From NCBI GenBank assembly GCA_025890175.1, contig JANPYM010000019.1, forward strand, positions 248,001-312,000: a stretch of DNA of 64,000 nt, in the 5' to 3' direction. This DNA is from Ciborinia camelliae (lineage: Eukaryota; Ascomycota; Leotiomycetes; Helotiales; Sclerotiniaceae). Shown here one piece after another: positions 20,647 to 63,285 of this stretch (its first letter is position 1; every line of letters begins with the position of its first letter). A model generated the notes under the pieces. That model worked only from the letters and a program-made list of their open reading frames with translations, was not told the DNA's origin and ran no database searches. The position numbers were made by a program, and so were the translations under genes.

Positions 20647-20790
20647 CCTCTTGTGGTATTGTAAAATATATGTGAAGTATGATGTGATTGTATTAGGTTC
20701 TAGGTGGGTGCTACGAAGAGGGCTTATATGCCCGTAGATCGTACTAGTGAGCCTAGCGCAATCACGTGCATACTAGGCCTATTCACTAGG
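20647..20790 (-). mobile_element. LTR-like element, family B, copy 2 (abuts the Helitron remnant)
   Basis: About 140 bases nearly identical to 19379-19520, with TATAAGCCC and a CACGTG core. Its upper edge near 20790 is where the Helitron frame ends: the first in-frame stop after the Helitron DWHQP comes from this repeat. It therefore marks the truncation point. Confidence 0.6.
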
Positions 20791-21850
20791 GTTGGTGCCA
20801 ATCACAAACGCCGGTAGGAAACAAACTGGGGAATGCGAGAGCGAATAAAGGATATGAGCGGCCAATTTCATCCAATGGCGTGGATCGTATCACCGGTGCG
20901 GAAACGTGAGGTCGCGCAGATCTTTTTTGCCGCTGATGTTCTTTTTGTTGACTCAATTGTTCCATCAAAAGTGCACCTTGCGTAGAACGCGCGGCATGAT
21001 TTGGAATAAACAATTGAGTAGGAGGTAAAGCATCTTCACCATCGTCAGCGTCAGCATCAACGTCGCCCGAATCATCCATATCAACTGGCCCTCTCTCTGG
21101 ACCACGTTCTGTACCATCATCGTCATCCTCCACTTCCACTTGACAAACCTGATCCTCGACATCTCCATCTTCTGGCAACTGAGAAAGTCGCTCCCGCGAA
21201 ACAGTCACTCTGCGATTTCTTTAAACAATAGAATTCTGCAACAAATACTCTAACCATCTTTCTACCACTATCCGACGTATGGTAAACATCCACTTGAACT
21301 GACGCGAGGCAGATAATCGATTATTTTGGTGAGAGCGTTGTTTCGGAGGTCGAATTAAAATCAAATCCAACTCGTGTGGAAGATTCGGGAGACTGTCAAC
21401 AAATTTAGCCTCATTCAACATGAAAGAGCAAGTATGACCGGTATATTTATATTGATGCCCTCGAATGCGATGCATGCATATGTGTACATGCGCAACAGCA
21501 ATGACCATCTCCTTCATTTGCTCCAATTGGGGCAGATCGTAGGGAGCAAGTCCTGGCATCATATTGTTCTCTTTGCTCATCAAAAAAGATTCGCCAGCTT
21601 TTTGCTTCTTATCCCTCAACCTGCATTTTTTACAGACGCCCATATGAAGATCCCTTTCCATTTCAAACCATTTCTCTTCACGTCTGGAACACATGTCCAT
21701 ATTGCATTGGCTCAAATGAGACTGCCATTGTTTGATATCTGCCCGTCGATGTAATTCAATGGCTCGAGGCTGTTATGGCGGTGGTTGTTGAGAAGGAATG
21801 GGGGGTGACGCTGTTGGATAGGAGTTACACCGCCTCGTTAGAAACTTAGG
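20786..21850 (-). pseudogene. Helitron protein, N-terminal part only
   Basis: One minus-strand frame, broken by TAA codons at 21773-21775 and 21221-21223, reads from a Pro/Gln-rich leader through a Cys-rich stretch (CNMDMC...CKKC). It continues with MPGLAPYDLPQLEQMKEMVIA and RGHQYKYTGHTCSF, the DUF6570-type region found in front of fungal Helitron helicases. An acidic linker (DDDDG, DVDADADDGED) and LFALAFPSLFPTG, the entry to the Helitron_like_N domain, come last. The HUH Rep motif and the Pif1-type helicase are missing. It is cut at about 20790 by an LTR-like repeat and at about 21845 by the virus-like block. Confidence 0.8.
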
Positions 21851-22602
21851 ATTGAGTATATGTACGCATTGGGATCTGTACACAGGACCACATTCACATT
21901 CCTGTTCTTCACCGCATATATCTGCATAGCGGTATATGTACCCTCGCTGGCGAGCATAACGAGGTTGACCCTCTCGTACAACCCCATGTGCATGGACAGC
22001 TTCTTGAACATGATCGCGACCACAGCAGCATGCGTCACTGACGGTGATGAATCTAGGATCATAACGCCCTCTTCATGTCCAGCGCTCTCGACCCTCATCA
22101 GGAACTCCAAGACCGAAATCGAGTCGGACAGACACTCGTTCGTGACCGGGTTGTGCCTCATGGCCTTGTTTAATGCCGTATTTGATGATGTGGACATACC
22201 CAGATCGAACTCCTCGACGAAGCTCGGGATCCTGTCGGTCTCGATGTTGATCCTCTCGTACGCGACGTGTCCCGTCCTGGCGCCGGCTATATGACCACAA
22301 GCCACCGACTTGGACGACATCATGAGGGCCTCCGTGATGACCGCCAGATCCTCGTCAGCAACACCCCCTTGTCCACGGTTCATCTCCTCGATCATGTTCC
22401 ATATCATACCGATCTTTCTGAATGTCGGTAGGTTGTTGCATCTGATGATCGATATGGCCATGATACGTTCGTCGTTCTTCACATATACGCGTTGCTCCAA
22501 CAAGACCTTCCTCTCACAACACAGGTAGCGGCGCACGATCCAGTTGCAGACCTGGTCGATCATGGAGAACACATGGACGTTCAACGACAGGGATACAACC
22601 AA
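21838..22602 (-). CDS. Unidentified 254-residue protein of the viral block
   Basis: An uninterrupted G+C-rich frame. The first Met gives 254 residues; an internal Met at residue 14 (22563) would avoid much of the 59-base overlap with the divergent frame starting at 22544. The protein is mainly helical, with a Cys pair near residue 28 and GVMILDSSPSVTHAAVV about 70 residues before the end. No signal peptide or membrane segment. It stops exactly where the Helitron sequence begins, so its true C terminus may be lost. I do not recognise the family; an unrecognised viral transcription or virion protein is a guess from context. Confidence 0.5.
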   Translation of the reverse strand: MVVSLSLNVHVFSMIDQVCNWIVRRYLCCERKVLLEQRVYVKNDERIMAISIIRCNNLPTFRKIGMIWNMIEEMNRGQGGVADEDLAVITEALMMSSKSVACGHIAGARTGHVAYERINIETDRIPSFVEEFDLGMSTSSNTALNKAMRHNPVTNECLSDSISVLEFLMRVESAGHEEGVMILDSSPSVTHAAVVAIMFKKLSMHMGLYERVNLVMLASEGTYTAMQIYAVKNRNVNVVLCTDPNAYIYSILSF

Positions 22603-23500
22603 GAATCTGAGGGTGAGGCAAACAACGACAGCGGCTGCACATCAGGAGCGTGATCGAAGGACGAGATCGGTTGAGACGGTGTCCATGTTCGCCGGCAGGC
22701 TTATGAGGGAGTATCCGACCATGATCGCAAAGGAGTACCTGTCGGGGCTCATGAGGCAGAGGGGTGTTCCAAGTCTCGACTCATTCACGAGATCTCGAAT
22801 CGGATCATTCAGAGCCGGTCTGGGTCATCGCAGGGATACCGGCGGGGTCGTGCGCAAGCTCATGGTTCTGAGTAGATGGTCTAACCAGTCCACCATGATC
22901 AGTCTCTGGACAACGGAGCCTGTTGTGTCGACTTCGCTCATATACGGCAACTCGATCGACGTTACTGCGGCTAGGGACAACTTCATGCACGAGTTGCAGG
23001 TCATCGATCCCCTGACCATGACGACTCATACGCCGTCGATATCCACCAACCGTATAATGGGGAGGTGGGCCGGGTGGCTGGTCTGGAGGCAAATGGATCT
23101 CGTGGGAGGAGGTAATCCTGCATGCATGAACTGCAACTTGTCGGGGAGCACGCTCTTCTTCGCGGTCCACGATGGCAGCTCGAACGTCATTCACATGATG
23201 CTGACACCCGAGTCCATCCACATGCTCACATCATACTCAAGGGCAGTTTGTGCTCGCCTGGGGACTACCTCGTCAGTCGCGACGGGTGCGTCCACGAAGC
23301 TGAAGTTCCAGCCTGGACTAGTGATAGGCACCGCAACATCCCTGACGTTGTACGGCAATGGGTCCATGCAGTTGTGCGGATCACCTAATGACATAGAGGG
23401 TGTGTGCCAGTCGATGTTGGAGACGGTCAGGGTTACGATGGACTCGGAGATGGTCCAGTTCGTGGAGACTATGAGAAGGGCCGACGTAAGCGTGTTGTGA
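22544..23500 (+). CDS. Possible TBP-like protein of the viral block
   Basis: Open frame of 318 codons. A later Met at codon 48 (22685) is the more likely start because the first part overlaps the divergent frame. Residues about 253-296 read FQPGLVIGTATSLTLYGNGS then MQLCGSPNDIEGVCQSML. The order 'PGLVI....TSL.L..NG...L.G....DI......L' fits one half of the TATA-binding protein saddle. A C-x2-C pair lies near residue 192 (NPACMNC). Viral TBP-like factors direct promoter recognition by the viral RNA polymerase. The call is inference from one repeat, and the upstream 200 residues are unassigned. Confidence 0.4.
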   Translation: MQTWSIMENTWTFNDRDTTKNLRVRQTTTAAAHQERDRRTRSVETVSMFAGRLMREYPTMIAKEYLSGLMRQRGVPSLDSFTRSRIGSFRAGLGHRRDTGGVVRKLMVLSRWSNQSTMISLWTTEPVVSTSLIYGNSIDVTAARDNFMHELQVIDPLTMTTHTPSISTNRIMGRWAGWLVWRQMDLVGGGNPACMNCNLSGSTLFFAVHDGSSNVIHMMLTPESIHMLTSYSRAVCARLGTTSSVATGASTKLKFQPGLVIGTATSLTLYGNGSMQLCGSPNDIEGVCQSMLETVRVTMDSEMVQFVETMRRADVSVL

Positions 23501-23535
23501 CGGCTGGGGCTCAGCTAGCTACGACAACAACAGGA

Positions 23536-23799
23536 ATGCAACCTACATCGCCGATCATGTGCTTCTACAGGACCAACATCTGCAGCGTGTGTGAGGACAT
23601 GATATCGACCAAGATCTAGCTCTGCAACAAGGCCCCACCGGGAGCTGTGTGCCTCGACAAGGACAAGGTCACCGGGCGGGATATTTCCCTCATCATGGGC
23701 ATGGACACGAATGGCCGCCCGGTCATGGAGATATCCACGATCATGAGGGTGGTCGAGGTCACGAATATCTGTGTATCATGTGCACCATCCAGATTTTGA
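23536..23799 (+). pseudogene. Small Cys-rich (zinc-ribbon-like) ORF with an amber codon
   Basis: In the frame starting with ATG at 23536 the protein has CSVC near the start, LCNKAPPGAVC in the middle and CVSCAP at the end, about 87 residues. It is interrupted by TAG at 23617-23619. Spaced C-x2-C pairs suggest a zinc ribbon of the kind found in small polymerase subunits and viral transcription factors, but I cannot assign one. It begins 36 bases after the stop of the TBP-like frame on the same strand. Confidence 0.4.
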
Positions 23800-23842
23800 A
23801 CTTGCGCTCGATGATCATCATTATCAAAAACCAAGCAGATCA

Positions 23843-24392
23843 CTAGGTCCTGTTATAGCCTCCGCGACCCATTGCACGTAACGTGGTCGTGTCGCGAGCA
23901 ACTGCTGCACCTTGTGCATAATTTCGTGTACACATGACGATCATATCATAGCGTCGTACCATGACTACGTGTACTCTTACTGCTTGCGTGATCATATGAT
24001 TTTGATCATCACGCAGATTTTGTATGCCTTGTTGGGCCCGTTGAAGGGTCATGAGTTCGTATCAATATCAGTCGACGTCTGTCTCGACATCAGTTTCGTC
24101 GACCATCTCCGTATAGGTCGTCTTGATCCACGTCAGGATCGTATTGCCATTCTTGTCCTTGATCATGAACGTGCCCGCGAGGTCTGTCGTGGACTTATCC
24201 ACAAGCGCAACAATACCCTTGGGCGTATGCTTGTTGGAGCCACCATTCGCACACGTGGGGCAGAACAGGATCCCGATCGTGGTTACGAACTTGTCTGGTG
24301 TGGAAACCGCGTGTTGGTCGATCCAGCTCCCTGACGTGGGCCCCCTTTTGTCTGCCTTGTCCTTGCCCTCGTAGGTCTTATAATCATCACAC
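23843..24392 (-). pseudogene. Unidentified minus-strand ORF of the viral block, broken
   Basis: One frame without a clear start runs from about 24392. It contains SWIDQHAVSTPDKF, a C-x2-C pair (FCPTCANGG), GTFMIKDKNGNTILTWIKTT and an acidic DETDVETDVD. Two close TGA codons near 24056-24066 follow, then the same frame continues as a Gln-rich helix (LQRAQQGIQNLRDD) to the stop at 23843. It lies directly downstream of the RNA polymerase relic on the same strand and could be its continuation or a separate gene. No family recognised. Confidence 0.35.
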
Positions 24393-24436
24393 GAGGTTAT
24401 TGCGCAACTAATGCAACTGCAACTATATATAGTATA

Positions 24437-26300
24437 TCATAATTTTGTATTTACACATATCGTAATTCGTTTAATCGTTTTTATAAATATACTCGATTTG
24501 TACAAAATCGTTTTATGAATTGGATTATATGCTTGCGCAATGTATACTAAACTAATGATTTTGATTGTTATTGGGAATTCGTTATATTTTGCATTATATC
24601 TTTCAGCAATTCTTTCGACATTTGTGAGGTCAACTTTATCAATATTCTCGATCAGTACCACTGCCAAGATCGATTACGTAAAAAGATTTCTGCTTACTTT
24701 CGAGTTCGCTATCAAAGCTAGGTTTGTGCAGACTTTACTTTTGAAGTTCGCATCCGATACTCGAATTATGGTTGGTGCAGGGGATCTATTTATACAGATT
24801 ATCGTGTAACAGTATTTGGATGACTTGAACAGGGTCTCGATGGCTGCGGATTTTTCGTTGACGGATCCGTACTTGGACAAATCGATCCCCCTCTGGTACA
24901 TAATCTTTGTGAGCTTGGTTATCTCAAACGAACACGTGATACTGGTCATGGCCATGCACGTCAGGGAGGCGGGGCGTGACGGGGGATGCGATCGAGAGGA
25001 CTCCCTGGTTCATAGTTACGCATATTCCCAACATCATCCCCAGCCTTATTGCATTATATAATCCGGCCACTCTATGCATGCTTATCATTATATTTATTAT
25101 TCTATGCTTGAATCTTTCAACAAACGATATCCAATACATGCAATTGATCATGACCTTGTACATTACAGTCCATGACTTCTGCTTTAATATCAGTGTATCG
25201 TATAGGACTTTATCTTTGTGCATGGATATTTTTTTGAACGTTATTGTACTGTATATCATATTATCGATTTTACGTCTCTTTATTATTGTCGGCATAATCA
25301 ATTTTACAATCCGCATTATGTCGACAATCCCATTGCTAATCCACACCCTCCTTCACTCCTTCACCAGCTCCTCCTGGCCATCATCCGATGCGGATGCGAT
25401 GATCCAGCACTCGTCGCCGTCGAAATCCGCGTTGGTCAGGGGACAGACCTCAAGAGGAACCCTGCACAATTTCTCGCCAGTTCTCGACATCTTGATCATC
25501 ATCGGGAGCGCACTATCTGGCCCTTGAGATGGACATCGACCGAATGCGACTATCTCCCCCTCTCTCAGTGTCCTTATATTGCACTTTCCATCCTTCGTCA
25601 TGTGCACAAACCTGCCCTTGACGAAGACCTCCTCTGGTAGAATGATCGTCCCCATCTCGAGCGATTCGATCTGGATGCCGCCATCCGCATGAGGATGTGG
25701 AGGAGGCGTTATCAGGAACCTCATGCTGTTAGTCGGTCGACAGCCGTTGCACGCCTTCCTCAGGATTCCCCTCTTACCCTTGAGCCTCCTGAAGCAGAAG
25801 TCGGCGACGTCTAGCGCGTTCTTGTCCCCGCCCAGAACCGCCTTGTTCATCATGAACCCGTCAGACTGCACGAGCTCGTCTCCAGCGGCATACCCGTACG
25901 GGATCATGTATGTGCCGGTGTCCGGGTCCATGGTTAGATGCCCCTTGCAGCCCCTGTGCATCCAGCACCCCTTACTGGCGTTCATCTGCTCGGCGGTGGC
26001 GGATATTGGAGTCAGATTCCTGGTCTCGATGCTGGTCCACACACACCTCACGACCTTGGGCGAGTTTATAATCGAACGTTGGGGCCGAACGACTCTCGTC
26101 GCCGAGAATATCCTCTCCTGCTCACATATGGTGTTATCTGCGCTTATGTCCATATTCGTTATTACGATCTGCCTCGTTACCCTAAAGCGAGCTTTGTCAC
26201 CAACGTACCATTAGATCAACAACACATTCGAAATGCTATACCCAACATATAATCTATCCAAAACCGTAGAGGGGGTCAAATTCGTGTATATTAGATTCGA
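24437..26300 (-). pseudogene. RNA polymerase largest-subunit (RPB1/beta'-like) relic
   Basis: The best frame (25353-26153) holds FSATRVV at residues 16-22, matching the start of the RPB1 active-site region. It also has GEIVAFGRCPSQGPDSALP ('V...R.PS....S') and the absolutely conserved NADFDGDE at residues 241-248 (25410-25433), whose Asp residues bind catalytic Mg. The frame continues past TGA (25353-25355) to about 24924, where GMMLGI and SPVTPRLT resemble the trigger-loop entry (G...G....EP.TQ.T). A frameshift near 24950 follows, then KLTKIM and a further TAA at 24674-24676. Upstream residues YVGDKARFR lie before 26153 behind a TAA at 26211-26213. Only about 130 residues separate NADFDGDE from the trigger loop, against several hundred normally, so there is an internal loss. 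Not functional. Confidence 0.85.
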
Positions 26301-26325
26301 ACTCGATGAACCCACTGAACTTTAG

Positions 26326-28149
26326 TTATACAAATGTAGATTAGTTAACAAATCGATAAAACTAATCAATACGAAATTCATAACCGCAACGAAGTTTGTA
26401 TCCTCATTTGCAGTTTTTAGTTTAAGCCTTTTTCCTTTATTTAATATCAATGCGATATTGATTGAGTTTCTGTTCCAGATCCCAATCGTGGAGACCGAGA
26501 TAAGACTAGATGTAGCGATGTTCAAGAGCATGTACGATCTCATGGCCTCGGGTATGTTCGGCCATGTGGACAAGCGTACGATTACGGAGGAGGGGTGCGC
26601 CTGGTGGACGGGTCTACCCACGAACAAGAATGCGAAGGCGAGGACGAGGTCAACCGGAGAGAATGTCGTCAAGATACCTATGACAGTCCAGGCGATAGCG
26701 CCGGGGATCAAGTTCGCGGTGTCACACGAGTACATGTTCACAGGTAGGATTGTGAGACCTGAGTATAGTTCGGTAATGGAGGAGTACATGTGCGAGACTG
26801 TAATAGAATGCACGAGCGTGAGGCTGATATCCAGGATGTACATCAACGGCGATGAGCACTCGTACGCATCCGAGATCGAGATCATCAGTGATATCACACA
26901 CGAACTGCTGAGGATGCTCTTGAACACGATGGTCTCGGTTGTAGGAAGCATACAGTCCCTGTCGAACGAGATCGACCCTGAACTCATGACGGCGATCAGG
27001 CGAGCCGAACATGCCGTTGTTGATGTCAGGGACATATCCCCGTACAAGGGCATATACATGCCCAAGACCAATGGTGTGAAGGTCTACGTGTTCTGCTACT
27101 CGTTCGGATACGTGTTCTGCTACTCGTTCGGATACGTGGTCACGGCCACCGACAACAACCTGACCGTGAGAATGCTGAAGTTCGCGTTGATCGGGACGCC
27201 GATGTATGAGTGTACAGACAGGCCCGACATCATAGTTGCGGAGATGCTCATGGACGGGACACTGGTCTACATCGATACGCTATGTGATAGTGGATAACCA
27301 GTGTCGGAGTCGAGGGAGCACGTGCCCAGGCCGGTGACGATCATGCAAAGGCCACCTATGATAGTGAGGAGGTCGTGGCACCGACCGCCACCCAAGTCCG
27401 CGATCATCATCGAGTCCACGCCCAATGACGGAGTCGTATGCGTGACCTCGTTCAGGACGCTGCGCATGAAGCCGCCCACGATCGATCTCAGGTGCACTAC
27501 TAGGATTTTGATTATAAGTTTGAATGATGTCCAGATCTCGGTTGTCGTTGCAAGTCTGAACATAGTTGAAAATATAATCTACAAAATAAACGTAGTTAGG
27601 TCTTCATTTTTTGGTTATATTAGACTGACAAACCCAAGTGAACGAATCAGTAAAAGAATGCCAAACAACGCGGATGTGATCAAGCGAGCCTTTATGTCTA
27701 TACTAAAAGATGCAGATATGAACATGGTCCTGTTCGACCTCACGTCAATGTCCTTCAGCATGCGCACAAGGATATACGAGATGGCCCAGGCATGCGCGAG
27801 TTCCATGAGAAACGTGATCGTGATGTTCGGTGCAGGGAGGTTCCAGGAGTGGAGGGAGATGAGAACCGACCAGTTCTCATATATAGCCGTGGACCCGAAC
27901 ATAGACGTGGATGTGCTGGCAAGACACTCGAGCAGGATCAACATCGTGCCGTTCGATGTGAACAAGCCCTTATCCACGCAGATATCCTCGATATCTAGGT
28001 CAAGGGGAACTATCCTCTACTGCAAGATGAAGTCCGAGGACTTCGTGGCTCGAACGAATGCCGACACAATCATGGCATCGATGGGTGTACCAGCTGTCAT
28101 CGAATTCATTTCCACCAACATTGGGCGTTTCGGTGGGAAGCGACCTTGA
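26326..28149 (+). pseudogene. Viral-type trifunctional mRNA capping enzyme relic
   Basis: One frame, read through TAA at 27295-27297, shows the three cap-forming activities in viral order. Triphosphatase: IVETEIRLD (residues 10-18 of the frame from 26458) and SEIEI (138-142), the paired Glu motifs of metal-dependent RNA triphosphatases. Guanylyltransferase: KTNG at residue 203 (27064-27075), then after the stop NDGVV and MKPPTIDL, motifs IV and V. Methyltransferase: VIVMFGAGRF and YIAVDPNID, the SAM-binding motifs. In the nucleotidyl motif the usual Asp of KxDG is Asn. An in-frame 24-bp tandem duplication follows at 27088-27135. The C-terminal methyltransferase end is missing; the last 10-15 residues are probably junction sequence. 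Chromosomal ascomycete capping enzymes are not fused this way. Confidence 0.85.
27088..27135 (+). repeat. 24-bp tandem duplication inside the capping enzyme frame
   Basis: Two identical 24-bp copies (27088-27111 and 27112-27135), each coding VFCYSFGY, immediately after the nucleotidyl-lysine motif. Because it is in frame it does not end the ORF, but it would add eight residues to a core strand of the guanylyltransferase. Confidence 0.95.
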
Positions 28150-31100
28150 TGGCGGTGAATCCATTTTGAAGATAGATAGGTAAATAAACTAGTAGTGAAA
28201 TGAGTGAATAGATAATTCTGGGTCGATTCTTTTTTTGTTAAAAATCGATTCGATTTAATTGAATAAATAAAAGAAGGGGTTTGAGGATCAATAAATAGTA
28301 AATGAGGGTTTGAACAATTAATTATACCTTTATATTGGGGAATCAGGTCACATGGTTTCCGGTCACGTGATCAGGGATCACGTGGTAAGCTATACCGCAT
28401 AGGGTATGGGGGAGTAGCATATAAGGGCAGCTGGGCTGCCACCAAATACATACTCCTTAGTCAAATCAATCTACCATAATTCTACCCTAGTACTTCCTTC
28501 CTACCGTATTACTGGCCATCCCAGGATATACGATTAATACTTTATATCTTTATATCCTTTTTTTTTAATTTGTCTATAAATTGTAAGCCGTTTGTTAAAT
28601 TTGTTATTATTTTTTATCAAATTATGGTTGATTTGATGTAAATACTGAAATACTGTAGCAAATATTGCCTGTAGCACCAGCAACTGCCAAACCCCATGGC
28701 GAGATGGTGGCTTCTTTTGATAAAACTGGATCCCTCATCAGCAATTCAAATTTGCAATATGCATCATGGTGGAGACCAAACAAATGCCTGGTATTTGTCT
28801 GTTTTTCGATTTCAAGGAGATTTTGACATTGCGAACTTCCTTACCAAAAGTACCCTACAGCAATGTGATCTGGAATACCAGTTTTATACATTTAAACATT
28901 AAACTCACAATCTTTTTCCACGATAAATCCGTCTTTTGCTTAACCTTCTTGTCACACACTTTTTTCTTTTTCTTTTTCTTTATTTAAAGCTTTGATGTCC
29001 AGAGCCTTATGGTACATGATGCTATGCAGACATATCACATTTTAACCTTACATCTAGACAAGGATAGTTACGAACGATCAGGATTAGTAGGCAAACCGGT
29101 GAGCGGCTTCTTCGAGGTACTCGATCGCGTTGACTGTTTCTAGAATCCTCGTCGTCCCTCCCCATCGTTGAGGTTGCAAAATGACACAAAGAACTTCAGT
29201 TCCATTTACTACAAAGATCTCAACACCAATTGATGGTCGATCTGTACATAGAATACCTTTTTTTCTTCTTTTTTTTGCTCTTAGATCTCTCCCTTTTTCA
29301 GTTGTGCTAATCAATACCATTACAGGTCGAATACGTCGAGAGAGATTCCGTCGTACACACCCTATTTGAGATGTTGTTTCGCAAGCATTGCGGCGAAGGA
29401 CATTGCCGTCTGAAACAATGAAGACTGCTCAAAATGATCTTGTCTGTTGCGTATCATTCCACTAGTTGCTAGTTACTGGAACCTCCAAGATTGCTTGGTT
29501 GGCTAACCTCAACACTGAGTTCAAGCCCACCAAGAACTATCGCCATACTTCAATTATTTGCACAATTGGTGTCTCGACTCTCTTCCTCGTTCCTTTGCCC
29601 CACGCTTACCCCCCATCATACATACATCCATAGGCCGCCATACAATTTAAAAAGGCGTCAACATCAACAAGAACTCACGGTAAAAGTGTGTTCTGCCTGT
29701 GCCTGTGTCTTTTTGAAAGATTCAAGTGGACATGAAAAACTTATTAGATGGCAACGTTAAGTACCTGACTTGGACCCAGTGACTATCAATCACTACTGCA
29801 TCTCTATTTAAAGATAAATGGAATTTTATTTATCTTGGTGTGTTTTATATATAGAGGGAGAGAGAGAGATATACATATATAAAACCTACAGTGTACAGTC
29901 CCATCGCACATCGCATTTATTATTTATCGCGCAACGATCTAAAGACCCTAAGACTCTCAGATAGGAGACTGGTGGTGCCAGCCGATCTTTATTATTGCAG
30001 CTCCCTTTGATATTTCCGAATTTCGCGCCGTTGCAGACGCTTGCATCCTATTCTGGTCCAAAGTCCTTCCTATGGATCAGGACGGGCGAAGCATCCATAC
30101 AGTAACTTCGTAACCAAGGTGAAAAACAGGGTTAGGGTTACAACCGCATTGAGATCGAATCTATCTCACGCACCATGATCACCCCACACTTGGGGTCAGC
30201 ACACCTTCAATTTGTACGACTACGCCTTACCCGGAGAACAAAAGCGAAACGCAGTTGCTCGCGACTCAGATACCAAGTTCGACGCATAGCGCAATCGCTT
30301 GCAGTTGAAATACCAAGTTTGAAACGAAATTTCTAGCAGCAATTCAGTGGAATATTGGCTAACGTATTTAATGAGACAGAATACCAAAGTAGTCGTTGCA
30401 AGCAGCGATGAAAGAGAGCCCCGAGGTGCCACGTCGGCCGGAAACTCACCCACAAAGGCAGATAATCGTCCACAATCATGGGTTGTACTTCAAGTGGCGA
30501 TGAGCACGTAGCGCAAGTTGTATTAGAATATATAGCCCCGTGGTATTGATATTGACTACTTTTAGTAAGCGGGAGTAAACACTCCAACTATGTTCTACAT
30601 AAATTCGGGAAGAAAACTTTATCGCGCCTCTACGCCCCATCATTATCTATATTCTCCACTCGTGATAATTATCCATTCATTTGTACATTTCTTCATATTC
30701 TACCCGCTGGTTCATCACCACGTAAGTGCCATCGTCCTGCAAATATAGCGAGCGAAAGGAGTAGATGCGGAAATATATGTATGCAAGTCTTGCTTACCTC
30801 AACGAATAATCACCATTGGGTTTTCTCTTGGGACCGCCAATTTCCCTTCAGAGAAGACAAAATTCATTGGCGGTCGATGGGGATCGATGCATCATGATTA
30901 CACTTGATTAAAAGATTCGGTTCCAGTCAAGTTATCTTGCATCACAACCAGCCAGATTTTTTCCCTATGGGATTCCAGTTTCACAAGCAATCAATCTTTA
31001 AGACACCCCGTAAAGAGTGTACTAGTCGCTCACACACTCTCGGTCTTCGCGCCAACATTGTGTAATGATCCAACTCATCTAGCACATCAATGGCCCGAAT

Positions 31101-48417: not shown

Positions 48418-48603
48418 CTAGGAAAGGGTGTAACAGATAAATTTGAAGAGGGGTGAAGTGGTGGGTGAAGTGGAAGATGGAGTGGGGGGTAGATAAATGT
48501 AGGAAACTACGGATTGGGAATAGCTTCATTTTAGCGTGCTTTGGAGTAGCATAAAAGCTTGTACTTTCGAAGTCTTAAAACAAACCAGTTCCTTCCTCTT
48601 CAA

Positions 48604-48978
48604 CTATTAGTGAACCACTTTTCTAAGGTAAAGTGGAATATAAATTGGTAGGAGTAAAGTGGGAGGGATGAAATAAAAAAAATAGAATGGGAATAGGAAA
48701 GATAAAGTGGAAGAAATAAAGTGGCAAAAGTAAAATGAAAGAAGTGAAATGGAAAAAATGAAATGAAAGAAGTAAAGTAAAAAAGATAAAATAGAAGGGA
48801 TGAAGTGAAAGAGGTAAAATAGAAAAAGTAAAATAAAAAACGTAAAGTGAGAAGAATGAAATAGAAAAAAAGAAATGAAAGAAATAAAGTTAAAAAAAAA
48901 GAAAAAAAAAAAGAAAAAGTGCAATGAGAGATAGAGTGGAATATAAAATGGAAGAAATGAAATGGAAGGGGTGAAATG
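48604..48978. repeat. Purine-rich tandem repeat truncating the gypsy integrase
   Basis: About 370 bases of degenerate AGTGAAATGGAAAAAATGAA / GAAATAAAGT units, nearly all A and G on the plus strand. The integrase frame runs into it right after its second catalytic Asp region and turns into a false Phe/Ser/Leu-rich protein. Confidence 0.8.
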
Positions 48979-49560
48979 TCGGCTCCAGTAGCGCCTACAG
49001 TAGGAAAAGCCCATATGTAACGTGAGAAATAATCTATAACTAAAAGAATATGTGAAAAGAAAATGAAGCCTTCTTTGTCGAAAAGTTCGTCATTGTAATC
49101 GAGAGGCTGTACTGTCAATCTTAAACGGATGAGTTTTTGGACTACTGGCCATATTAGTCCGAGTAGTTGAGCTTTGTTGACGTAGGTAGGAGGGAAAGGT
49201 CCGATGTAGTCAAAACCCACGAGGATGAGAGGTCTGTTGATTTTGTATGGGACCAGTTGAGTGATTCTTTGGCGAATTCCGTGTTTAGCGCATTTGATAC
49301 ATCCCAGGATGTAGTACTTGACGTCTGCGACGAGGGTTGGCCAATAGTATTCTCTTAGCCTCTTGATGGTGAGCTCAGCGGCGTAGTGTCCTTCCAGGTC
49401 GTGTGCGTGAGACAAGATGTCGGCGACTTCGTTCTTGAGAATGCATTTCTTCTCCACTTCACGGAGGCAATAAAAGAGTTCGTCCCCGAACATAACGAAG
49501 TTCTTGGCGTGTCGAATGAAGGAGGCTCGATCCAGGCGGGACATCTCCTCGGGGATTGTG
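48979..49560 (-). pseudogene. Ty3/gypsy integrase, partial
   Basis: The frame has the zinc-binding H..H..C..C region (HAHDLEGHYAAELTIKRLRE, YILGCIKCAKHG), then FDYIGPFPPT with the first catalytic Asp and ILLVIDYFSRYIWAFP with the second. The third acidic residue, the rest of the catalytic core and the C-terminal domain are absent because a purine-rich repeat follows. It is linked to the upstream RNase H frame by a frameshift near 49530. Confidence 0.85.
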
Positions 49561-50970
49561 CCTGTAGAAACGTAATTGAATATATCTCACCATACCATTC
49601 GTCATCTTCATACTTGCTGGACACAGGGCCGAACTGCGTGTTGTAAGAAAGAACGAAAAGCTGAGATGAATGAAGGGAGTATTCGGGAAGGGCAATCTCG
49701 CCGTGCGTGTCGAGTTGAGTTTGGGAACTCGCGGTGTCCCGTAGACGAAGAAGTTCGTTATAGCCTCCCTTGCCGTCCTTCCAGATCCATACTGGCTCAC
49801 CGGGATCTCGAGACAAGTGGCCGAGAGAATGGATGATGTCGTCTGGCTCGCAGTTTTCGTCTGGGAAGATGGTCCGAGAGAGAGCGTCTGCAACCTTGTT
49901 GCGAGGACCTGGAATATAAGCGATGGAAATGTTGAGAGCAAAGAGCTCCATCGCTTAGCGAGCGTAGATGCCCTGAGTTTCAGCGTGAGGAGAGAGAAAG
50001 TGAGTGAGGGGTAGGTGGTTTGTGTGTACTATACTCTCCTCGATACCTCTAAAGTAGTAATAGTATTTCCGGACGAATTCGACAATAGCGAATAATTCCC
50101 TTTTGTATATCCCATAATTTCTCTGTGTCTTATTGAAAAAAAAGGAGTCGTAAAGTACTGGGTAGGTGATTGGTTTCGCAAAGGATCCCGTGGAGCAGGG
50201 TCGGAGTTGGGTAATAAAGCATCCCGCGCCGTAAGCGCTAGCGTCAGAGTACATGCGGATAGGAAGGGTATAGTCAACGCCATATGATTCCACGACCTCG
50301 GAACATTTGGTGCGCAAAAACTCGAAAGCAAGTTTTTCGCATTCCCCCCATTTCCACTCAACCTTACCAGTAAGTTGGGAAAGAGGGCGAGAAATTTCTG
50401 CAAAGTTCTTAACGCCTCTCCGAGTAAGTTGTACTGTAGCCAGAAAGCTCCGAACGGCCGTTTGGTCCTTGGGTACAGGAAATGTGCTGATTTTAAGGGA
50501 GCGGGAGGGTTTAGTTTCCATAGCGCCACCGGCTTTGTGAAGAACTCCTAGGGCTTCTATCTGACCCACGAACAGGTGTAGTTTCTTGAAGAAAAGCCGC
50601 AACTGCGCGAACGCGAGTCTTGGAAAAATGTGACTGGCCAAAGTCTCGTACGCGGCCTCGAAGGTCTTCTAGCCGGAAAAGATATCATCGACGTAAAACT
50701 TGGTCTTAGCCAAGCCTTAAGGGGTGCTTGGTTCTAAGATAGAAGAAAAGAATCCATCATGAGAGGGAAAGCGGTACTTAGCTGGCAAAGGGGGTATATA
50801 CTCGAAAATGATGTAAAGCAGCTCAAACATAAAGAAACAGGCTGTCTGCGTTCCCTGGGGAACTCGGGTGGGTTGTTAATAAACGAAATTTCCGATGGTA
50901 AATGCAAAAATATAACGATCGTCAGGATGAAGTGGCATAGCCCAGTAAACGTATTTCAAATCAAGTTAGC
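49480..50970 (-). pseudogene. Ty3/gypsy reverse transcriptase core and RNase H
   Basis: A single frame with in-frame stops. The RT palm is seen as LDLKYVYWAMPLHPDD, RVPQGTQTA and FYVDDIFSG (catalytic YVDD near 50672-50683). RNase H follows with MYSDASAYGAGCF (first catalytic Asp), TQRNYGIYKRELFAIVEF (Glu) and IPGPRNKVADALSR (last Asp). Stops fall at 50966-50968, before QPTRVPQG, before GLAKTK, after FSG and at 49953-49955. All are TAA or TAG where family members have sense codons such as CAA or CAG, consistent with RIP. Confidence 0.9.
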
Positions 50971-51781
50971 AGAAGACTTGATGACTAGGGTGAGAAAGAT
51001 ACTCATGCACATCCTGAGAAAGTCCGCAGTAACTACCGGGCATGATCTCCTTAACATTGGAATAATCGAAGACTACCCACAACTCGGGTTCTGGGTCATC
51101 ATCCTCGAGATTGGCCGGGTAGTGCATTCCTGGCTTCTTCACGACTAAGGGCGTTGCCGACCAATCGGATAAACATCCATTGGCATGAACGGTGTATTCA
51201 TACATGTGACAAGCTTGTCCTTCGGACACGATCTTGTTGAGCCAATACAACTGTTGAGGAGTGTATCTTGGTCTGAACCTACTTTTATGGGGTTTTGTCC
51301 CTGGTCTCAGCCGTACTCGATGAGTATAGAGAGGAGTGGGAGGTATGTGCTCGAGCTCCGTGGCATTCAAATCCTTGTAGGTGTATAGCAAACGAATCAC
51401 TTTTTGTCTAAGCTCACCTGTGGCCAATGGTCCTATATCGGTTGTGTTCCGGGGAATGGAAAACCATTCGTCTATCTTCTCCTGAGGGTCATTAGACAAT
51501 TGTCGTGGACGAGGACGCCTTTTGGTCGGGTAAGGATGCTCCCTTGGGGGGGAAGTTCCCCTATCATCTTCGGAAATGACGGCTGTGGCTGAAGCAACGT
51601 ACTCGTCACCTCTCTTAACGGTTAGTTTGATCTTTGGGGAAGATGAGCAAAAAGAGAAATCCATTTCTGAGAGGATCCCTGGTGGAATATCGGTTCCGCT
51701 AAGCTGGTCAAGGGCATTGATATCCTGGAACAGTTGGGCACGAGGGGCAAAAGAGAAAGTGTTAGCATTTGAGGTCATCAT
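50966..51781 (-). pseudogene. Ty3/gypsy RT N-terminal region
   Basis: Begins with a linker and continues into YTHRVRLRPGTKPHKSRFRP, the leading strand of gypsy RT ('H.I....G..P......R'). SDWSATPLVVKKPG and ELWVVFDYSNVKEIMPGSY follow. It is in the same frame as the downstream RT core, separated only by a TAA. An Arg-rich spacer between protease and RT is visible (PTKRRPRPRQ). Confidence 0.9.
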
Positions 51782-51885
51782 ATTAGAATAGCAATTGAGG
51801 GCGAGGCTTTTATAACAGACTTTCTCAGGTCCTTCTTCACTTGGCCGCAGAGGGAAATTGAACAGTTTATAGTCGTGCCGGGGAC

Positions 51886-52656
51886 TTATAAGTTTAAAGA
51901 ACCGGAAGTTGAGGAATCGTCGCTGCCGGAGCTGGATTGAGAAGATTCGTCGGTAGACGAGGATTGGGTGGAAGAACTCGAAGAGTCTGATGGCGCGTCG
52001 TCCGAAAAGTGAACATGCTTCTCTGGCTTGAAGGTTGCTCGAGACTTCTCGTCTCCGGATGTCATGAGCAACTTGGCCTTCTGCACTACGGATCTGTACT
52101 TTGGGTCGGTTGGATAAAGAACCAATTGATGAGACGCTGATTGTCGAAGTCGAGAGGTCTCTAGCTCCACACGTTCTTCATGTCGGTCCCCGTCTCCAAT
52201 GACAATTGTTGAACGGAAAACGTCCAGATGTGCCTTGACGGTGAAAAGCCATGGTAAGCCGAGAAGAAGGTTCTTTTGGTTCTTGTTGGCAGTGGTCTTG
52301 TTGTCGTCCGGGCGGATGAAAGCGTGAACAATGCGCTGAATTCCCTCAACAGTGAAGGAGAACGAGGTATATTCTGAAAGACTGGTGTCTGAGCCGTCTG
52401 CGACTCCCATAGCAATTCGCTGATTCGGAGATATGACGAAGCGGGGTAAGGCGAGATGATCGGCGAGTGCAGAAGATATGATGTTTCCGTCCGAGCCTTG
52501 GTCGACGATACAATGAGCTGTAGACAGGACTACGGAAGTAGGTTGTCCTTCATAGTCGGGTACTAGACATGTGCCGGAAATGCGAAAGGGGCGGTCGGAT
52601 TCGCTGATTCGGATCATGACTGGAGTTGTAGGTACTTCGCAGGCTGGAAGGTTCAA
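51886..52656 (-). pseudogene. Ty3/gypsy aspartic protease
   Basis: The active-site segment CIVDQGSDGNIISSALADHL and the later LLLGLPWLF are the two hallmarks of gypsy retropepsins (D-S/Q-G..; hydrophobic-LG..W). The C-terminal third is a low-complexity Ser-rich tail. The frame is open, but differs from that of the flanking gag and RT frames. Confidence 0.85.
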
Positions 52657-52762
52657 GCTATGCTCGCTTCCAACTTGGGCTGAAAGGCTCGGAATGTGAT
52701 AAGCTGGGTCGTTCTGCTTGTGCGGAAAGAACTGCTCGGACTGCTTCTTGTTAATATGGATG

Positions 52763-54028
52763 TTAGACAGATTGGTATATATCTATCTGGCTGATTCTGG
52801 AAGGATGGACATGGCTCAGCTCATCGAGCTCTGCGACTAAGGCAGTCGACTTTGTTTGTAATTCTTCCTCGAATTGTACAGTGGGGGAGCGATACTTCAT
52901 CTTCTTCTTGGTGTTAACTCGTTGAATGAGAAGCTTCAAATTCTTTGCGGCATCTGGGGAAACCTGAAGGAAGTCGAGAAGGTTGATGCCGTTTGCACCT
53001 AGTGTAAAACGTTGCATAAGTTCTTTGTAGTCAATCGGGTCTGAGCCTTCTCGAGCAGCGATGTTGGAAAGGGGTCTGGGAACTCTGTGTTTTAGTTTGC
53101 CCGAGGGAAGGGAGGGAAAGTCCGTGACTTGAGAGGCTGTTTGGGAAGAATGTTCGGTAGTTGGTTTCTTAGATTGTAAATCTTTAGGTTTGGGTGGAGA
53201 TTGAGTTTGTTGTGGCTTTTCAGGTTGTGGCTGAGTTTGTTCTTCTCCCCTATCGGTTAGGGCGGATGTACGTTGTCGCTTCCGAGCAGCCAGCGAGTTA
53301 GAGTAAGATGAGACTTGTTGTTCAAATTCGTCATCTGCATCGGTTCCTTCATCCTCAGGGTCGGGATTCTGAAAGGAAGAAGGAGTATCATCGAGACCGA
53401 AAGTGTTGTATTTCTCGTACTCCTGAACTGAGTTCTTGTTTGGGGAAGGGGAAAAGATGTGTCCGGATCTGGCGTAGACTGTGCCATTGCCAGTATTGGG
53501 TGACGAAGTGTTGCTGCGGAAATCCTGTAACTGCACTGTTCGTGGGGCTGGTCCCGGGTTTCGTTCGACATACTTTCGATACTCGTCTTCCTGGCTCCAA
53601 TTGCCGACGCATATATATGCCATGTTGCTTCGTACGGAGGTCGTGTTAGGGAGGATGATCTTTCGAAGAACGGCTTGTTCCCAGATGGGTAAGTGTCGGT
53701 TTCCATTTGGGCAGTTGTTTCTATAATGACCGTAATCACCGCAGGCGAAGCACAGAGGTTTTCGGGAGAAATCGTACTCATCGGATTCATTCACGATGGG
53801 GTGAGATTCTGTGGAGGGATCTGGCCTTATTGTTCGAGGATTGGTTGTTGTTGTAGGAAGCGGTGGGTTGTTGCTGTTGAGAAGGTGCGTTATTGTAGTT
53901 GGAGTTGTTAGAATTGTTTGAATTATAATTATGGCTGTTATTGTTATTGTTGGGTCAATTGTTATCTCGATTTTGAGCAGGTTTGAGTTGCTGCTGCAAG
54001 ACCTCGAGTTTCTTGGGAACATCCTCAA
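52763..54028 (-). pseudogene. Ty3/gypsy gag, nucleocapsid part with CCHC knuckle
   Basis: Open frame of 421 codons. Residues about 95-108 form the zinc knuckle CFACGDYGHYRNNC (C-x2-C-x4-H-x4-C), which binds element RNA. Around it are Asn/Thr/Pro-rich linkers, an acidic DPEDEGTDADDEFE stretch and a helical end (IDYKELMQRFTLGANGI). The N-terminal part of this frame overlaps the end of the upstream gag frame, indicating a frameshift. Confidence 0.85.
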
Positions 54029-54894
54029 GACTAACGTCTTTCAAATGATCTTTGACGAGCTTGAGGGCTTCGTTCTCGTTCAGAGAGGCTTGAAGGTCAA
54101 GATTCTTTTGAGTGTTGCATAGGATGGAGTAGGATTCTTTGAGGGACTTACACACTGCATTATTAGAGATAGCGGTTTTGCGAAGCTTGGCGTCACTTAG
54201 ACCCTTGATGAAGTTGGTGACGAGAGTTTCCTGGAGTTCTGTATTGAGGATGTTGGCATTTTTTTTCCGTGAAAGATATATCTTTCGTTCCGAGTTCATA
54301 TTGGAGTTCTGCGGTGCGTTTGAAATATGCAGCCAGCGTCTCGTTCTTGGTTTGTCGGTGGCTTCTGAGGTTGAGAAGAGCCGTTTCTGACGAATCCTGG
54401 TCCTTGTGGGAAGGAAACTTGTCTTTAAGGTTCTGGATGAAGCTGTTTTGCAGTTCAATGGTGGCTGCGTTCATATTATCAAGGATCTCAGAGTATTTGT
54501 CCTGATCTTCGAGCCATCTGAGGGCTTTACTGGTTAGTTTCAGCTGGGTGATGTTGAAGAAGGCGTAAGGCTGGTATTGCCGATCCTCGAGGCTGAGATT
54601 GATAACTTGTTTGGTTTTTCGAAGCCATGAGATGGAGGTCATGTTGATACCATCGAACTCGGGGATATCTTTGGTTTTGATGAGCTTCCAATGCGCTCTG
54701 GCTGCTGCCGCGTCAAACGCCATGGCGGATGTGGATTCCGAAGGAACCAGATGTCTAAGTAGTGCAAGGTTGATAAAATTATTAGAAGAATGATCTGAGG
54801 ACGAAGATGAACGTGAGGGTGAAGGTGAAAGTGATTTGGGGATCAGATCGATGAGGTTGAGTTTCAAGATAAGGCGAAAGAGTTGCAGAACCAA
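53955..54894 (-). pseudogene. Ty3/gypsy gag, capsid part (frameshifted)
   Basis: From 54894 a Ser-rich leader is followed by HWKLIKTKDIPEFDGINM, WLRKTKQVINL and LRSHRQTKNETLAAYFKRTA, the order of the retrotransposon gag domain ('F.G....W......F.......L..L.Q...E.....'). At an A-run (plus strand T8 at about 54258-54265) the frame changes and continues as ILNTELQETLVTNFIKGLSD and a helical tail to 53955. The homopolymer points to a one-base slippage mutation. Confidence 0.85.
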
Positions 54895-55387
54895 ACGTTC
54901 TGAAGGGTTGCGGATTGTTCTTGTGAGCTCGAGGATGAGAGGTAGATATTGTTCCTTGTTTGTCGAATCAAGTTCTGGGAGGTATTGGAATAGTCTAACT
55001 AGAAGGTGACGGTAAAGGTGAGATGGGGAAGGTGGGTTCCAGATTGGCTGTTTTACCGAAGTGATCTAATTGTTGGTGTGGGGTTGGGGTTTCTGGAAGA
55101 GAAAGAAGGTGGTTGTGGGGATGGTTCTGAGGGAGTGACCCCAAGTAAAGGAAGAAGAAGGACGAAGGTATTTATTTTGTGTTTGTCAAGAAGGTGTGTT
55201 AGATAGGATGGAAAGAAGTTGCTGAAAGAGAGTCATTCAACGTAGAAAATTCCGGATTCTTGTTGGAGTTTATCATCAATAGAATAGCTTCTGGCGATCT
55301 CGATGGGTCAAGCTTTAAACATTTGAATGGCGTTTAGTTCTTTGCGATCTTCTCAAGTAAAGAGTTTTTTGAAAAACACAATTTTTA
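54895..55387. other. Leader side of the gypsy element, no LTR found
   Basis: The element's 5' LTR would be expected here (minus strand), but I see no TG..CA repeat with a partner elsewhere. No 3' LTR is seen below 48600 either. The element is probably truncated at both ends. Confidence 0.45.
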
Positions 55388-60479: not shown

Positions 60480-63285
60480 ATCGTTCTGTATAGACCCGTT
60501 TTTATTTTATATATATATAATTAATAAAAAAATAAATCCATTGTTATTATATAAAGCAATATATTATTTCAATCTTATTATTAATTCTTTATAATGAAAA
60601 TATATTATATATATTTTTATTAATATTAATAATTATAAATATTTTTAATAATATTTATATACATTCTTTTCCTTTTCTTATCTACATTGCATCTTTTATC
60701 CCACTTTATATATTTAACCTTACTATTACCTTGACTTTGTTAATTTTTATACAATTTATCTTCCTCCAATTAATTATTAACATTTATAATTTCTAACTTC
60801 GATATTACTAAAACTATTTATCAATTAAATACTTTTATAATATATTCAATATTCTTTTCTAATATTTTCCCAACATATAATTTATTCTTTAAAACGAAAC
60901 GTTAATCTTAAACATATATTATAATCTTTTTAATATTCTACTTACTTTTATACAACATTTTATCCAATATATAATCTTTTTAAAAGTTATATCCAATTAC
61001 AATTTATTTAAATTGTATATTCATCCTTTTATATATATCGAATTTTTATTTATTAAATATATTAATATATTTTTTTTAATCAAATTCGAAATTGTTTCTT
61101 TTATAAATATACATCTCCATTATATACTCATATAACAATTACTACAATTAAAATGCTTAGTAATTATACTTCTCCAAATAATTAAATTTTCGAAATATTT
61201 AACTATATTCAATTTGTTAATTTTAAGTACATTTATAATAATATAAAAAAATCTTTTATACTAAATAAAAAAACTTAATTAACCATAATAATTAATTACA
61301 AACATTCAATTACTTATTTAACTATATAACTATATACTTTTTATACCGCATTTACTAAATTCAAACTATATTCACCTAATATTTTATAATACTAATTAAT
61401 AAATATACAGAATTAGCTTCTTTTCTTAACCCTATTATTTTTTTTAATATTATATAAAATATTTTTATTAAATTAATAATTTTAATTTATATTAAAATAA
61501 ATTTATATTATTTTATATATTAAACCCACATTATCTTTTTTTTACACTATTTCTTTACAAAATATTTTTTCGAATCCCATAATTTTTTATTAATTTTAAA
61601 TTTTTTATTAATTAATATTAAATTAATTATTAATTAAATAAATATATTATATTCAGTTTTTATAATATATAACTAAAAAATAATATTTATATAAATATAT
61701 ATTATATAAAAATCTAAATCTTTAAATCTTTATTTCAAAATTTGATTATAATATTATTAATATAAAAAATATATAATATTATTAAAAATATTATTAAATT
61801 AATTAATAATTTTATTAAAAAATATATTATATATAATATATTATTTTATAATACTATCATCTATAAAAATATATCTAATTTTATAATTATATTCTAAATC
61901 TTTTATCCAAAATACCATTTAATACATACAAACTACAATAACATTTTTATTTTTCCCCAAAAATAATATATTTACATATAATATATATAAAAATTTATTA
62001 ATTTTAATTTAATATATTCAAATAAAAAATTTTAATTTTTTAATATTTGTTTTATAAATATTATCAAAAAAAATAATATAATCTTAAATAAAAAAAATTT
62101 TAAATTGTTTTTTAAAAAACTAAACAATACTATAAATAAATTACCCTAATTAATTTTTAATTATAACAATTTTATAATAATATTTTTATACAATATACTA
62201 TTTCTTAATATTTTTAAATTTTACTTCCCAAAACATATTTTTCAATATTTTATATAAATTAACTACATTAATCTTAAATCCTAATATTTTCTTCTAATTC
62301 TAAATCATTCGTTTTTTCAAATATTATTTTTCACATTATTATATAAAAACATTAACTTTATTTTTTCCTTTATCTATAAAATTATTAATAATTTATTCGA
62401 AAATATAATTTTTTATTAATTCAATTTTAATAACAATTCAAATAACATTATTAATTTTTATATTTAAAATATTTAAATTATAATTATATTTTTTTAAAAA
62501 AATATATTAATATTATATAAAATTTAAAAACTTTTATTTAATAATTTTTATATATATTAAACAAAATATTACAATATAATTTTATTATAACTTTTTTTTA
62601 AACTTTAAAATTGTTTTATCTGATTTTTAATATTATCAATATTAATAATATTTTTAAATATAATTTTTTAATTTGTATAATATTTTAATAATATTTTATA
62701 TATTCAATATAAAAAATTATATTTCTTTATATTATTCTTTATTTATAACAAATAATATATTATTTTATATAATAAAATTAAAAAAAATATAATAAATATT
62801 TTTGATTTGAAAATAAATATTAAATATAAAATTTATTAAAAACAAAATAATATATAAAAATATAATAAATAATAAATAATATATAATTAAATAAAAAATA
62901 AAAATAAAATAAAATTAAATTTGAAAATTTAAAATTTGATTTTATTATAAAAAATTAAATATTTCATTTTATCAACAATTTATCCCCTTTTTCCCTTTTT
63001 TTCCCCATTTATATATTTTTTAAAATATATATATACATTTAATAAATATAAATTATACTTTAAATCATACCTTTTTATAATATATATTATTAAATATATT
63101 ATTAAATTAAAATAAAATAAAATAATATAATATATTTTTATTTTTAATAATAATAATAATAAAAAATAATAAATAAATTAATAAACAATTAATTTATAAT
63201 ATATTAATTTAATATAATAATAATATTAATAATTATATATTATTTATACAAACACTATCTTTTTACTATTTATATTATAATATGG
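60480..63285. other. 2.8-kb extremely A+T-rich tract
   Basis: Nearly pure A+T with scattered C and almost no G, no ORF and no readable protein remains. The T/C against A/G balance shifts along it. Typical of fungal A+T isochores made by RIP of transposons. Too degraded to name the source element. Confidence 0.8.

What the first reader, a model, noticed from the sequence alone, without database searches (positions are those of the whole stretch)
21838..28149. Endogenous large-DNA-virus transcription module in an ascomycete genome
The block encodes an RNA polymerase largest-subunit relative (FSATRVV, NADFDGDE) and a fused triphosphatase/guanylyltransferase/methyltransferase capping enzyme, with a possible TBP-like protein between unrecognised ORFs. 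Fused capping enzymes of this layout are known from poxviruses, asfarviruses, other nucleocytoplasmic large DNA viruses and yeast linear plasmids, not from ascomycete chromosomes. The G+C-rich, intronless, partly divergent gene order differs from the flanks. It suggests a past infection of a filamentous ascomycete by a large DNA virus, a group poorly documented in such hosts.
Basis: partly seen in the sequence, partly recalled or inferred. Interest (0 to 1): 0.93.

Follow-up and report, generated by a model that had tools for sequence, protein, structure and literature searches.

The report
Fossil DNA-virus transcription genes in ascomycete
A fungus chromosome carries a broken piece of a foreign DNA element that had its own gene-reading machinery; relatives of its genes turn up in other mould genomes, and those of one gene, mostly full length, in environmental DNA, which points to an undescribed group of DNA viruses or virus-like plasmids of moulds.

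Summary
The host is Ciborinia camelliae. Window 21838-28096 is an alien, decaying four-gene block: a divergent RNA-polymerase largest subunit (Pfam Rpb1_2), a capping enzyme (guanylyltransferase motif order), a protein with a probable TBP-like fold and an unknown ORF. GC at third codon positions is 0.65-0.73 against 0.40-0.45 in four host genes. RPB1 and the capping gene are broken. Single genes of the set occur in seven other Pezizomycotina genomes and in metagenomes. Of 32 unnamed TBP-like relatives 30 are full length; 14 of 15 whose longest contig reaches 20 kb have one of 21-33 kb, suggesting a free element of that size. It resembles yeast virus-like elements and large DNA viruses in logic, but membership in neither is shown: the polymerase tree is unresolved and in one test leans to jumbo-phage polymerases. 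My searches found no report of it.

The parts
20789..21772 (-). Degraded Helitron-type fragment (DUF6570), left flank, not part of the viral block
   Evidence: DUF6570 E 2.6e-17 in frame 21221-21715; assignment of DUF6570 to Helitrons is recalled
21838..22602 (-). ORF-A, 254 codons, unknown function, possibly cut at its 3' end by the left junction
   Evidence: GC3 0.72 like the other block frames; one match in the genome, itself; no Pfam match above a cut-off, no PHROG match; the Monosporascus protein P0045 matches the opposite strand on to 22391, upstream of the TBP-like start
22562..23500 (+). TBP-like protein, intact ORF
24677..25352 (-). Continuation of the RPB1-like gene beyond the TGA, then in another frame (25009-24677)
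   Evidence: P0002 matches 26123-24957 in one frame and 24982-24899 in the next
25353..26153 (-). RPB1-like (RNA polymerase largest subunit) main frame with active-site motif NADFDGDE
   Evidence: Pfam Rpb1_2 E 1.6e-5; PDB Rpo1N E 3.8e-6; homologs 39-48% identical
26458..27297 (+). Capping enzyme, first frame: RNA triphosphatase-like part and guanylyltransferase motifs I (KTNG, 27064) and III (DGTLVYID, 27253); ends at an in-frame TAA; the true start codon is not settled (open from 26326)
   Evidence: 60% identity to Bombardia P0006, and homologs P0007-P0009; motif order in P0008 and P0009
27091..27138 (+). Perfect 24-bp tandem duplication (FCYSFGYV twice); relatives P0007-P0009 have one copy of this stretch
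27298..28096 (+). Capping enzyme, second frame: guanylyltransferase motifs IV (DGVV, 27427) and V (MKPPTIDL), then a possible methyltransferase start; cut at the right junction
   Evidence: aligns with P0008 and P0009; methyltransferase by motif only, 0 Pfam hits
28097..28187 (+). 91-bp host patch: copy of the 5' start of a host gene on contig C12 (349476-349566), at the right junction
   Evidence: 98.9% identity; a neighbouring frame of the gene has a sub-threshold Swi3 match (E 0.017)
28193..28400 (.). Host repeat sequence: 28193-28333 is 85% identical to C23; 28333-28400 recurs in at least 39 other places

Best explanation
The block is a decaying insertion, in a Ciborinia camelliae chromosome, of about 6.3 kb from an undescribed dsDNA virus or virus-like element of filamentous ascomycetes. 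In the source element a compact RNA polymerase (largest subunit seen here) would start at promoters bound by the element's TBP-like factor, and the fused triphosphatase-guanylyltransferase(-methyltransferase) would cap the transcripts, so that the element could express its genes without host Pol II, probably in the cytoplasm. A stray piece was caught in the nuclear chromosome by break repair that also copied in a 91-bp patch of a host gene, and has since accumulated stops, a frame change and a small duplication. Shown: the genes, their alien composition, their breakage, the host patch at the right end, relatives in other ascomycetes and in metagenomes. Inferred: the gene roles, the 25-33 kb free form, cytoplasmic life, the repair route.
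For: RPB1 profile hits; capping motifs; TBP-like fold; GC3 0.65-0.73 against 0.40-0.45; no second copy found in the genome with four block proteins or with the block DNA; host patch at 28097; relatives in Pseudovirgaria, Bombardia, Colletotrichum, Xylaria, Pyricularia, Fonsecaea and Monosporascus; 30 of 32 unnamed TBP-like relatives full length, and 14 of the 15 whose longest contig reaches 20 kb have one between 20,959 and 32,916 bases; two separate clades of fungal copies in the TBP-like tree.
Against: The three recognisable genes are seen together only in Ciborinia; each other genome showed one of them. Length limits of the search (0.55-1.75 times the query) hide intact RPB1 and capping proteins, but it also means that the RPB1 and capping relatives in hand are all pieces, several out of frame at one end by eye; only the TBP-like relatives are shown full length. 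One unnamed relative (P0016) has a 283,578-base contig, so some environmental copies may be chromosomal. No relative was found in IMG/VR with RPB1, the first capping frame, the TBP-like protein or ORF-A, and no virion or capsid gene is known. The capping model failed (pLDDT 37), a profile search of solved structures gave nothing and the only Pfam match of a capping relative was below threshold (LEF-4, E 0.033). The left junction is not demonstrated.
Confidence: 0.72

Rival explanations
1. It is a fragment of a true nucleocytoplasmic large DNA virus (NCLDV) that infected an ascomycete.
For: RNA polymerase, fused capping enzyme and TBP-like factor are all part of NCLDV gene sets (recalled); weak BFVD matches of the TBP model include an iridescent-virus, a Terrestrivirus and, lower, a TFIID-named Mimiviridae protein. 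PMC10640383 (passages) reports an NCLDV-like endogenous region in the fungus Rhizophagus and cites single-virion nucleocytovirus genomes from crustal fluids where Ascomycota are the main eukaryotes.
Against: RPB1 does not group with the NCLDV-like RPB1s sampled, though its place is unresolved; contigs with the TBP-like gene stay at or under 33 kb in 14 of 15 cases of at least 20 kb; no relative found in IMG/VR.
Confidence: 0.13
2. It derives from a Pezizomycotina branch of the yeast cytoplasmic virus-like elements (killer-plasmid type).
For: Same logic: own polymerase plus a three-part capping enzyme on a small linear dsDNA element, with hosts in Ascomycota (PMC6211774, abstract, sections 10-11 and passages).
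Against: The yeast RNAP large subunit is a fusion of beta with the beta' start; here RPB1 begins with its own Met and lies beside a divergent capping gene, so no upstream fusion is present. The terms TBP and TATA-binding do not occur in the VLE paper's main text. Contigs are larger than the 13-kb class (size recalled). No VLE sequence could be put in the tree.
Confidence: 0.1
3. It is an old duplicate of host nuclear genes, a contaminant, or an assembly chimera.
For: The assembly was not checked against reads.
Against: Host Pol I, II and III share only 25-31% with the block and fall outside its 100% clade; GC3 differs sharply; the block lies inside a 536-kb contig with a host-gene patch at its right end; related genes are in other, separately sequenced ascomycetes.
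Confidence: 0.05

Closest known systems
Yeast cytoplasmic virus-like elements (pGKL2 type)
   Same: Small dsDNA element of ascomycetes with own multisubunit-type RNA polymerase and a capping enzyme with triphosphatase and guanylyltransferase activities, similar to the three-domain poxvirus enzyme
   Different: RPB1 not fused to beta, keeps an N-terminal part of about 120 residues before the barrel region, a TBP-like protein is present, contigs of 21-33 kb, filamentous hosts
Nucleocytoviricota (poxviruses, asfarviruses and others; endogenous region in Rhizophagus irregularis)
   Same: Transcription module with RNAP, capping enzyme and TBP-like factor (TBP-like in NCLDVs recalled); integrations in fungi
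   Different: RPB1 outside the sampled NCLDV-like sequences; no core replication or capsid genes seen; apparent size far smaller
Jumbo-phage RNA polymerase beta' subunits
   Same: Best PHROG family of P0002 (phrog_2987, E 2.3e-11); P0002 matches 4 phage records at E up to 1, best 7e-4; the clade groups with phage FLC6 at 92% in one tree
   Different: All long branches, so attraction is likely; phages have no TBP-like factor or eukaryotic-type capping enzyme (recalled); P0003 found no phage match
Baculovirus LEF-4 (capping enzyme)
   Same: The only Pfam family that surfaces for the capping relatives (P0008, E 0.033)
   Different: Below the family cut-off and in 1 of 6 members

Membership tests
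Multisubunit RNA polymerase largest subunit (RPB1/beta') | Double-psi beta-barrel region with the NADFDGD active-site motif | tested here: met
   Pfam Rpb1_2 above cut-off for the window frame and P0002, below cut-off for P0003; PDB matches
Fused viral-type mRNA capping enzyme | Guanylyltransferase motifs in order | tested here: met
   Motifs I, III, IV, V in P0008 and P0009 (definitions recalled, pattern written after seeing the sequences); a stricter pattern with motif VI did not match; window frames align to the same columns
Fused viral-type mRNA capping enzyme | Tunnel-type RNA triphosphatase and methyltransferase domains | tested here: inconclusive
   Glutamate motifs (VETEIRL, YASEIEI) and a glycine-rich stretch seen by eye; no Pfam hit; poor model
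TATA-binding protein fold | Two-repeat saddle fold | tested here: met
Nucleocytoviricota | RPB1 groups with NCLDV RPB1 | tested here: inconclusive
   Own clade on a very long branch, placement 33%, with phages; NCLDV-like sample limited to the IMG/VR hits of one query
Nucleocytoviricota | Major capsid protein, packaging ATPase, D5 helicase-primase, family B DNA polymerase | not testable with these tools
   The block is 6.3 kb and the source contigs could not be fetched
Yeast virus-like elements | beta-beta' fused large RNAP subunit | tested here: not met
   RPB1 frame starts with its own Met at 26153, as P0002 and P0003 do; VLE fusion per PMC6211774
Yeast virus-like elements | Linear DNA with terminal proteins and protein-primed DNA polymerase | not testable with these tools
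   No element ends available; PF03175 gave no match in the host genome, which does not test the free element

The most novel reading that the evidence does not exclude
A new major lineage of dsDNA viruses (about 25-33 kb) infects Pezizomycotina. It carries its own divergent RNA polymerase, TBP-like factor and fused capping enzyme, lies outside Nucleocytoviricota and yeast virus-like elements, and has left pieces in genomes of at least four ascomycete classes. It would be the first dsDNA virus group of moulds known from both fossils and present-day sequences.
Probability: 0.45. Interest if true: 0.95.

Novelty: new variant of a known kind. Interest (0 to 1): 0.85.

Why it matters
[quoted passage not shown] Here a broken transcription module, full-length environmental relatives of its TBP-like gene, and copies of single genes in eight ascomycete genomes point to such an agent, or to a large mould counterpart of yeast killer plasmids. 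It gives bait sequences to find the free element, and bears on how small dsDNA elements came to own viral-type transcription systems.

Tried and rejected
Nuclear duplicate rejected. Other pieces of the element in the host: none found with the RPB1, second capping frame, TBP-like or ORF-A proteins or with the block DNA; the first capping frame was tested only as DNA. RPB2 family search of the host: three matches, all with E under 1e-120, so host-like, and no divergent one; no PF03175 DNA polymerase. The one extra capping match, on contig C12, is the host patch. IMG/VR scans with the block's RPB1, first capping frame, TBP-like and ORF-A, and a GTDB scan with TBP-like, found no relative; these scans depend on short peptide patterns. 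Tree choices: one search dropped three of 19 rows that were identical over the region; one search left out L022, L025, L030 and the aberrant, long-branched L032 and kept the short C27 fragment out of the tree. A phage-like origin of RPB1 is kept open, not adopted, because every branch involved is long. PDB profile search with the TBP-like alignment gave only chance-level matches. Foldseek's first eight PDB hits for the TBP model were aspartate kinases with TM-scores of 0.13-0.19. Families not listed by VIA-align are not excluded. NCBIfam gave only chance-level matches for the capping alignment. Literature: searches (listings and abstract starts only, except the parts of PMC6211774, PMC10640383 and PMC8400408 that are cited by call) found no report of this element; most subscription journals are not held. 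Gong et al. 2020 on dsDNA virus fossils in fungi was seen only as a reference entry and is not held.
Full report
What is there. The window is contig C11:248001-312000 of a 46.2-Mb, 27-contig genome. A protein search names the record: Ciborinia camelliae, proteins NHQ30_011340 and NHQ30_011341 on a contig of 536,084 bases, the length of C11. In 21838-28096 four genes lie closely packed on alternating strands: ORF-A (-), a TBP-like ORF (+), an RPB1-like gene (-) and a capping-enzyme gene (+).

Polymerase. The frame 25353-26153 (-) reaches the Rpb1_2 family just above its cut-off (E 1.6e-5) and archaeal Rpo1N chains (E 3.8e-6). Relatives: P0002 and P0003 from metagenomes (48 and 46% identity) and P0004 from Pseudovirgaria hyperparasitica (39%). 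P0002 runs on beyond the block's in-frame TGA and into a second frame, so the gene is broken by a stop and a frame change. A genome-wide Rpb1_2 search found five matches: the host's three polymerase genes (on C21, C3 and C1, taken as Pol II, III and I), this block, and a fragment on C27. In a tree of the barrel region (174 columns, 16 rows; three of 19 rows identical over the region dropped) the block and its three relatives form a 100% clade on a branch of 2.7 substitutions per site. Its placement beside Pol III has 33% support. Identity of the block to nuclear and NCLDV-like RPB1s is 25-31%. With three phage polymerases added and four IMG/VR rows left out, the clade groups with phage FLC6 at 92%; the best PHROG family of P0002 is a phage polymerase subunit (E 2.3e-11), and P0002 matched four phage records (best E 7e-4) while P0003 matched none. 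These are all long branches. I read this as unresolved, but it counts against a simple NCLDV origin.

Capping enzyme. Two frames of the same phase, 26326-27294 and 27298-28096, are split by one TAA. Relatives: Bombardia bombarda P0006 (60%), and P0007-P0009 from unnamed sources. P0008 and P0009 carry the guanylyltransferase motif order I-III-IV-V; 0 of 300,000 shuffles of each match the same pattern. The pattern was written from recalled motif definitions after I had seen the sequences, so the shuffle count overstates the strength. A stricter pattern with motif VI did not match either (P0009 was cut before that place). Family searches gave only a sub-threshold match to the capping enzyme family LEF-4, and the structure prediction failed. 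The triphosphatase part rests on two glutamate motifs, and the methyltransferase part on a glycine-rich stretch, both seen by eye.

An alien, decaying insertion. GC at third codon positions is 0.72, 0.71, 0.72, 0.73 and 0.65 in the five block frames, against 0.45, 0.42, 0.41 and 0.40 in four host genes. The same value in ORF-A supports it as a real gene of the same source. Searches of the host genome with four block proteins and with the block DNA found no second copy. At 28097 the sequence switches to a 91-bp copy, 98.9% identical, of the start of a host gene on contig C12, followed by host repeats. That is the signature expected of end-joining with filler DNA (inference), and it shows that this end lies in nuclear DNA. 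One difference in 91 bases suggests the junction is not old, in keeping with a modest number of lesions in 6 kb (inference). The left end lies somewhere between 21772, the end of a Helitron-type fragment (DUF6570), and 21838; no left junction was demonstrated.

Distribution. Besides Ciborinia, single genes of the set occur in Pseudovirgaria (Dothideomycetes), Bombardia (Sordariomycetes), Fonsecaea erecta (Eurotiomycetes), and Colletotrichum caudatum, Xylaria castorea, Pyricularia pennisetigena and Monosporascus sp. (these four are Sordariomycetes, recalled). In the tree of TBP-like proteins (38 sequences) five of six fungal copies group with one environmental sequence, and Fonsecaea falls in another clade with P0040 at 99%, so at least two lineages have entered ascomycete genomes. 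Four of the five other fungal copies lack between 19 and 136 of 310 columns, and the Colletotrichum copy has a foreign start, although gene models may share the blame. Of 32 unnamed copies 30 miss at most 10 columns. For 15 of these 32 the longest contig listed is at least 20 kb; 14 of the 15 are between 20,959 and 32,916 bases, and one is 283,578 (from the table). Intact genes on contigs with a ceiling near 33 kb suggest a free element of about that size. I could not fetch these contigs. IMG/VR holds no relative that my scans could detect.

How it would work. An element with its own polymerase, promoter factor and capping enzyme does not need host Pol II and can be expressed outside the nucleus, as the cytoplasmic yeast virus-like elements are (PMC6211774, abstract, section 11 and passages) and as poxviruses and asfarviruses are (PMC8400408, passage). 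The RPB1 without beta fusion, and the TBP-like partner, set it apart from the yeast elements, whose large subunit fuses beta to beta' (section 10). Whether it makes virions is unknown.

Verdict. The endogenous viral-type reading is supported. 'Large DNA virus' in the NCLDV sense is not shown. The finding is of high interest because it ties fossil copies in several ascomycete classes to full-length environmental relatives of at least one of its genes.

Noticed in passing
L036 1423-1752 (G000 C27:1679043-1679372, +): A second, different RPB1-like fragment in the same genome (Rpb1_2 E 3.8e-8; motif NGDYDGDEMHL). Its best PDB match is a polymerase beta' subunit, 7s01 (E 1.6e-6; a phage enzyme by recall), and it matches phage beta' genes (best E 2e-5, Bacillus phage Goe21). 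It is 25-30% like the C11 block and its relatives and is flanked by degraded frames.
   Followed up: partly
window 28097-28187 and L007 9476-9566: 91-bp patch of a host gene (sub-threshold Swi3 match) copied to the right junction at 98.9% identity: a possible clock for the insertion.
   Followed up: partly
protein P0008 residues 275-310 against window 24944-24837 (-): The tail of the capping relative P0008, which looks out of frame, matches the RPB1 region of the window in another frame (44%, E 3e-5); unexplained, perhaps a rearranged copy.
   Followed up: no
window 48600-55065 (-): Frames that look by eye like a Ty3-type retroelement (gag, protease, reverse transcriptase, integrase), broken by stops.
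   Followed up: no
window 61000-63000: Very AT-rich stretch (7.5-11% GC) with extreme GC skew.
   Followed up: no
window 28333-28400: A 68-bp sequence found in at least 39 other places of the genome, family not identified.
   Followed up: no
proteins P0035 and P0043: Colletotrichum and Pyricularia copies of the TBP-like protein carry N-terminal stretches that look alike by eye, perhaps a neighbouring gene of the element fused by deletion.
   Followed up: no
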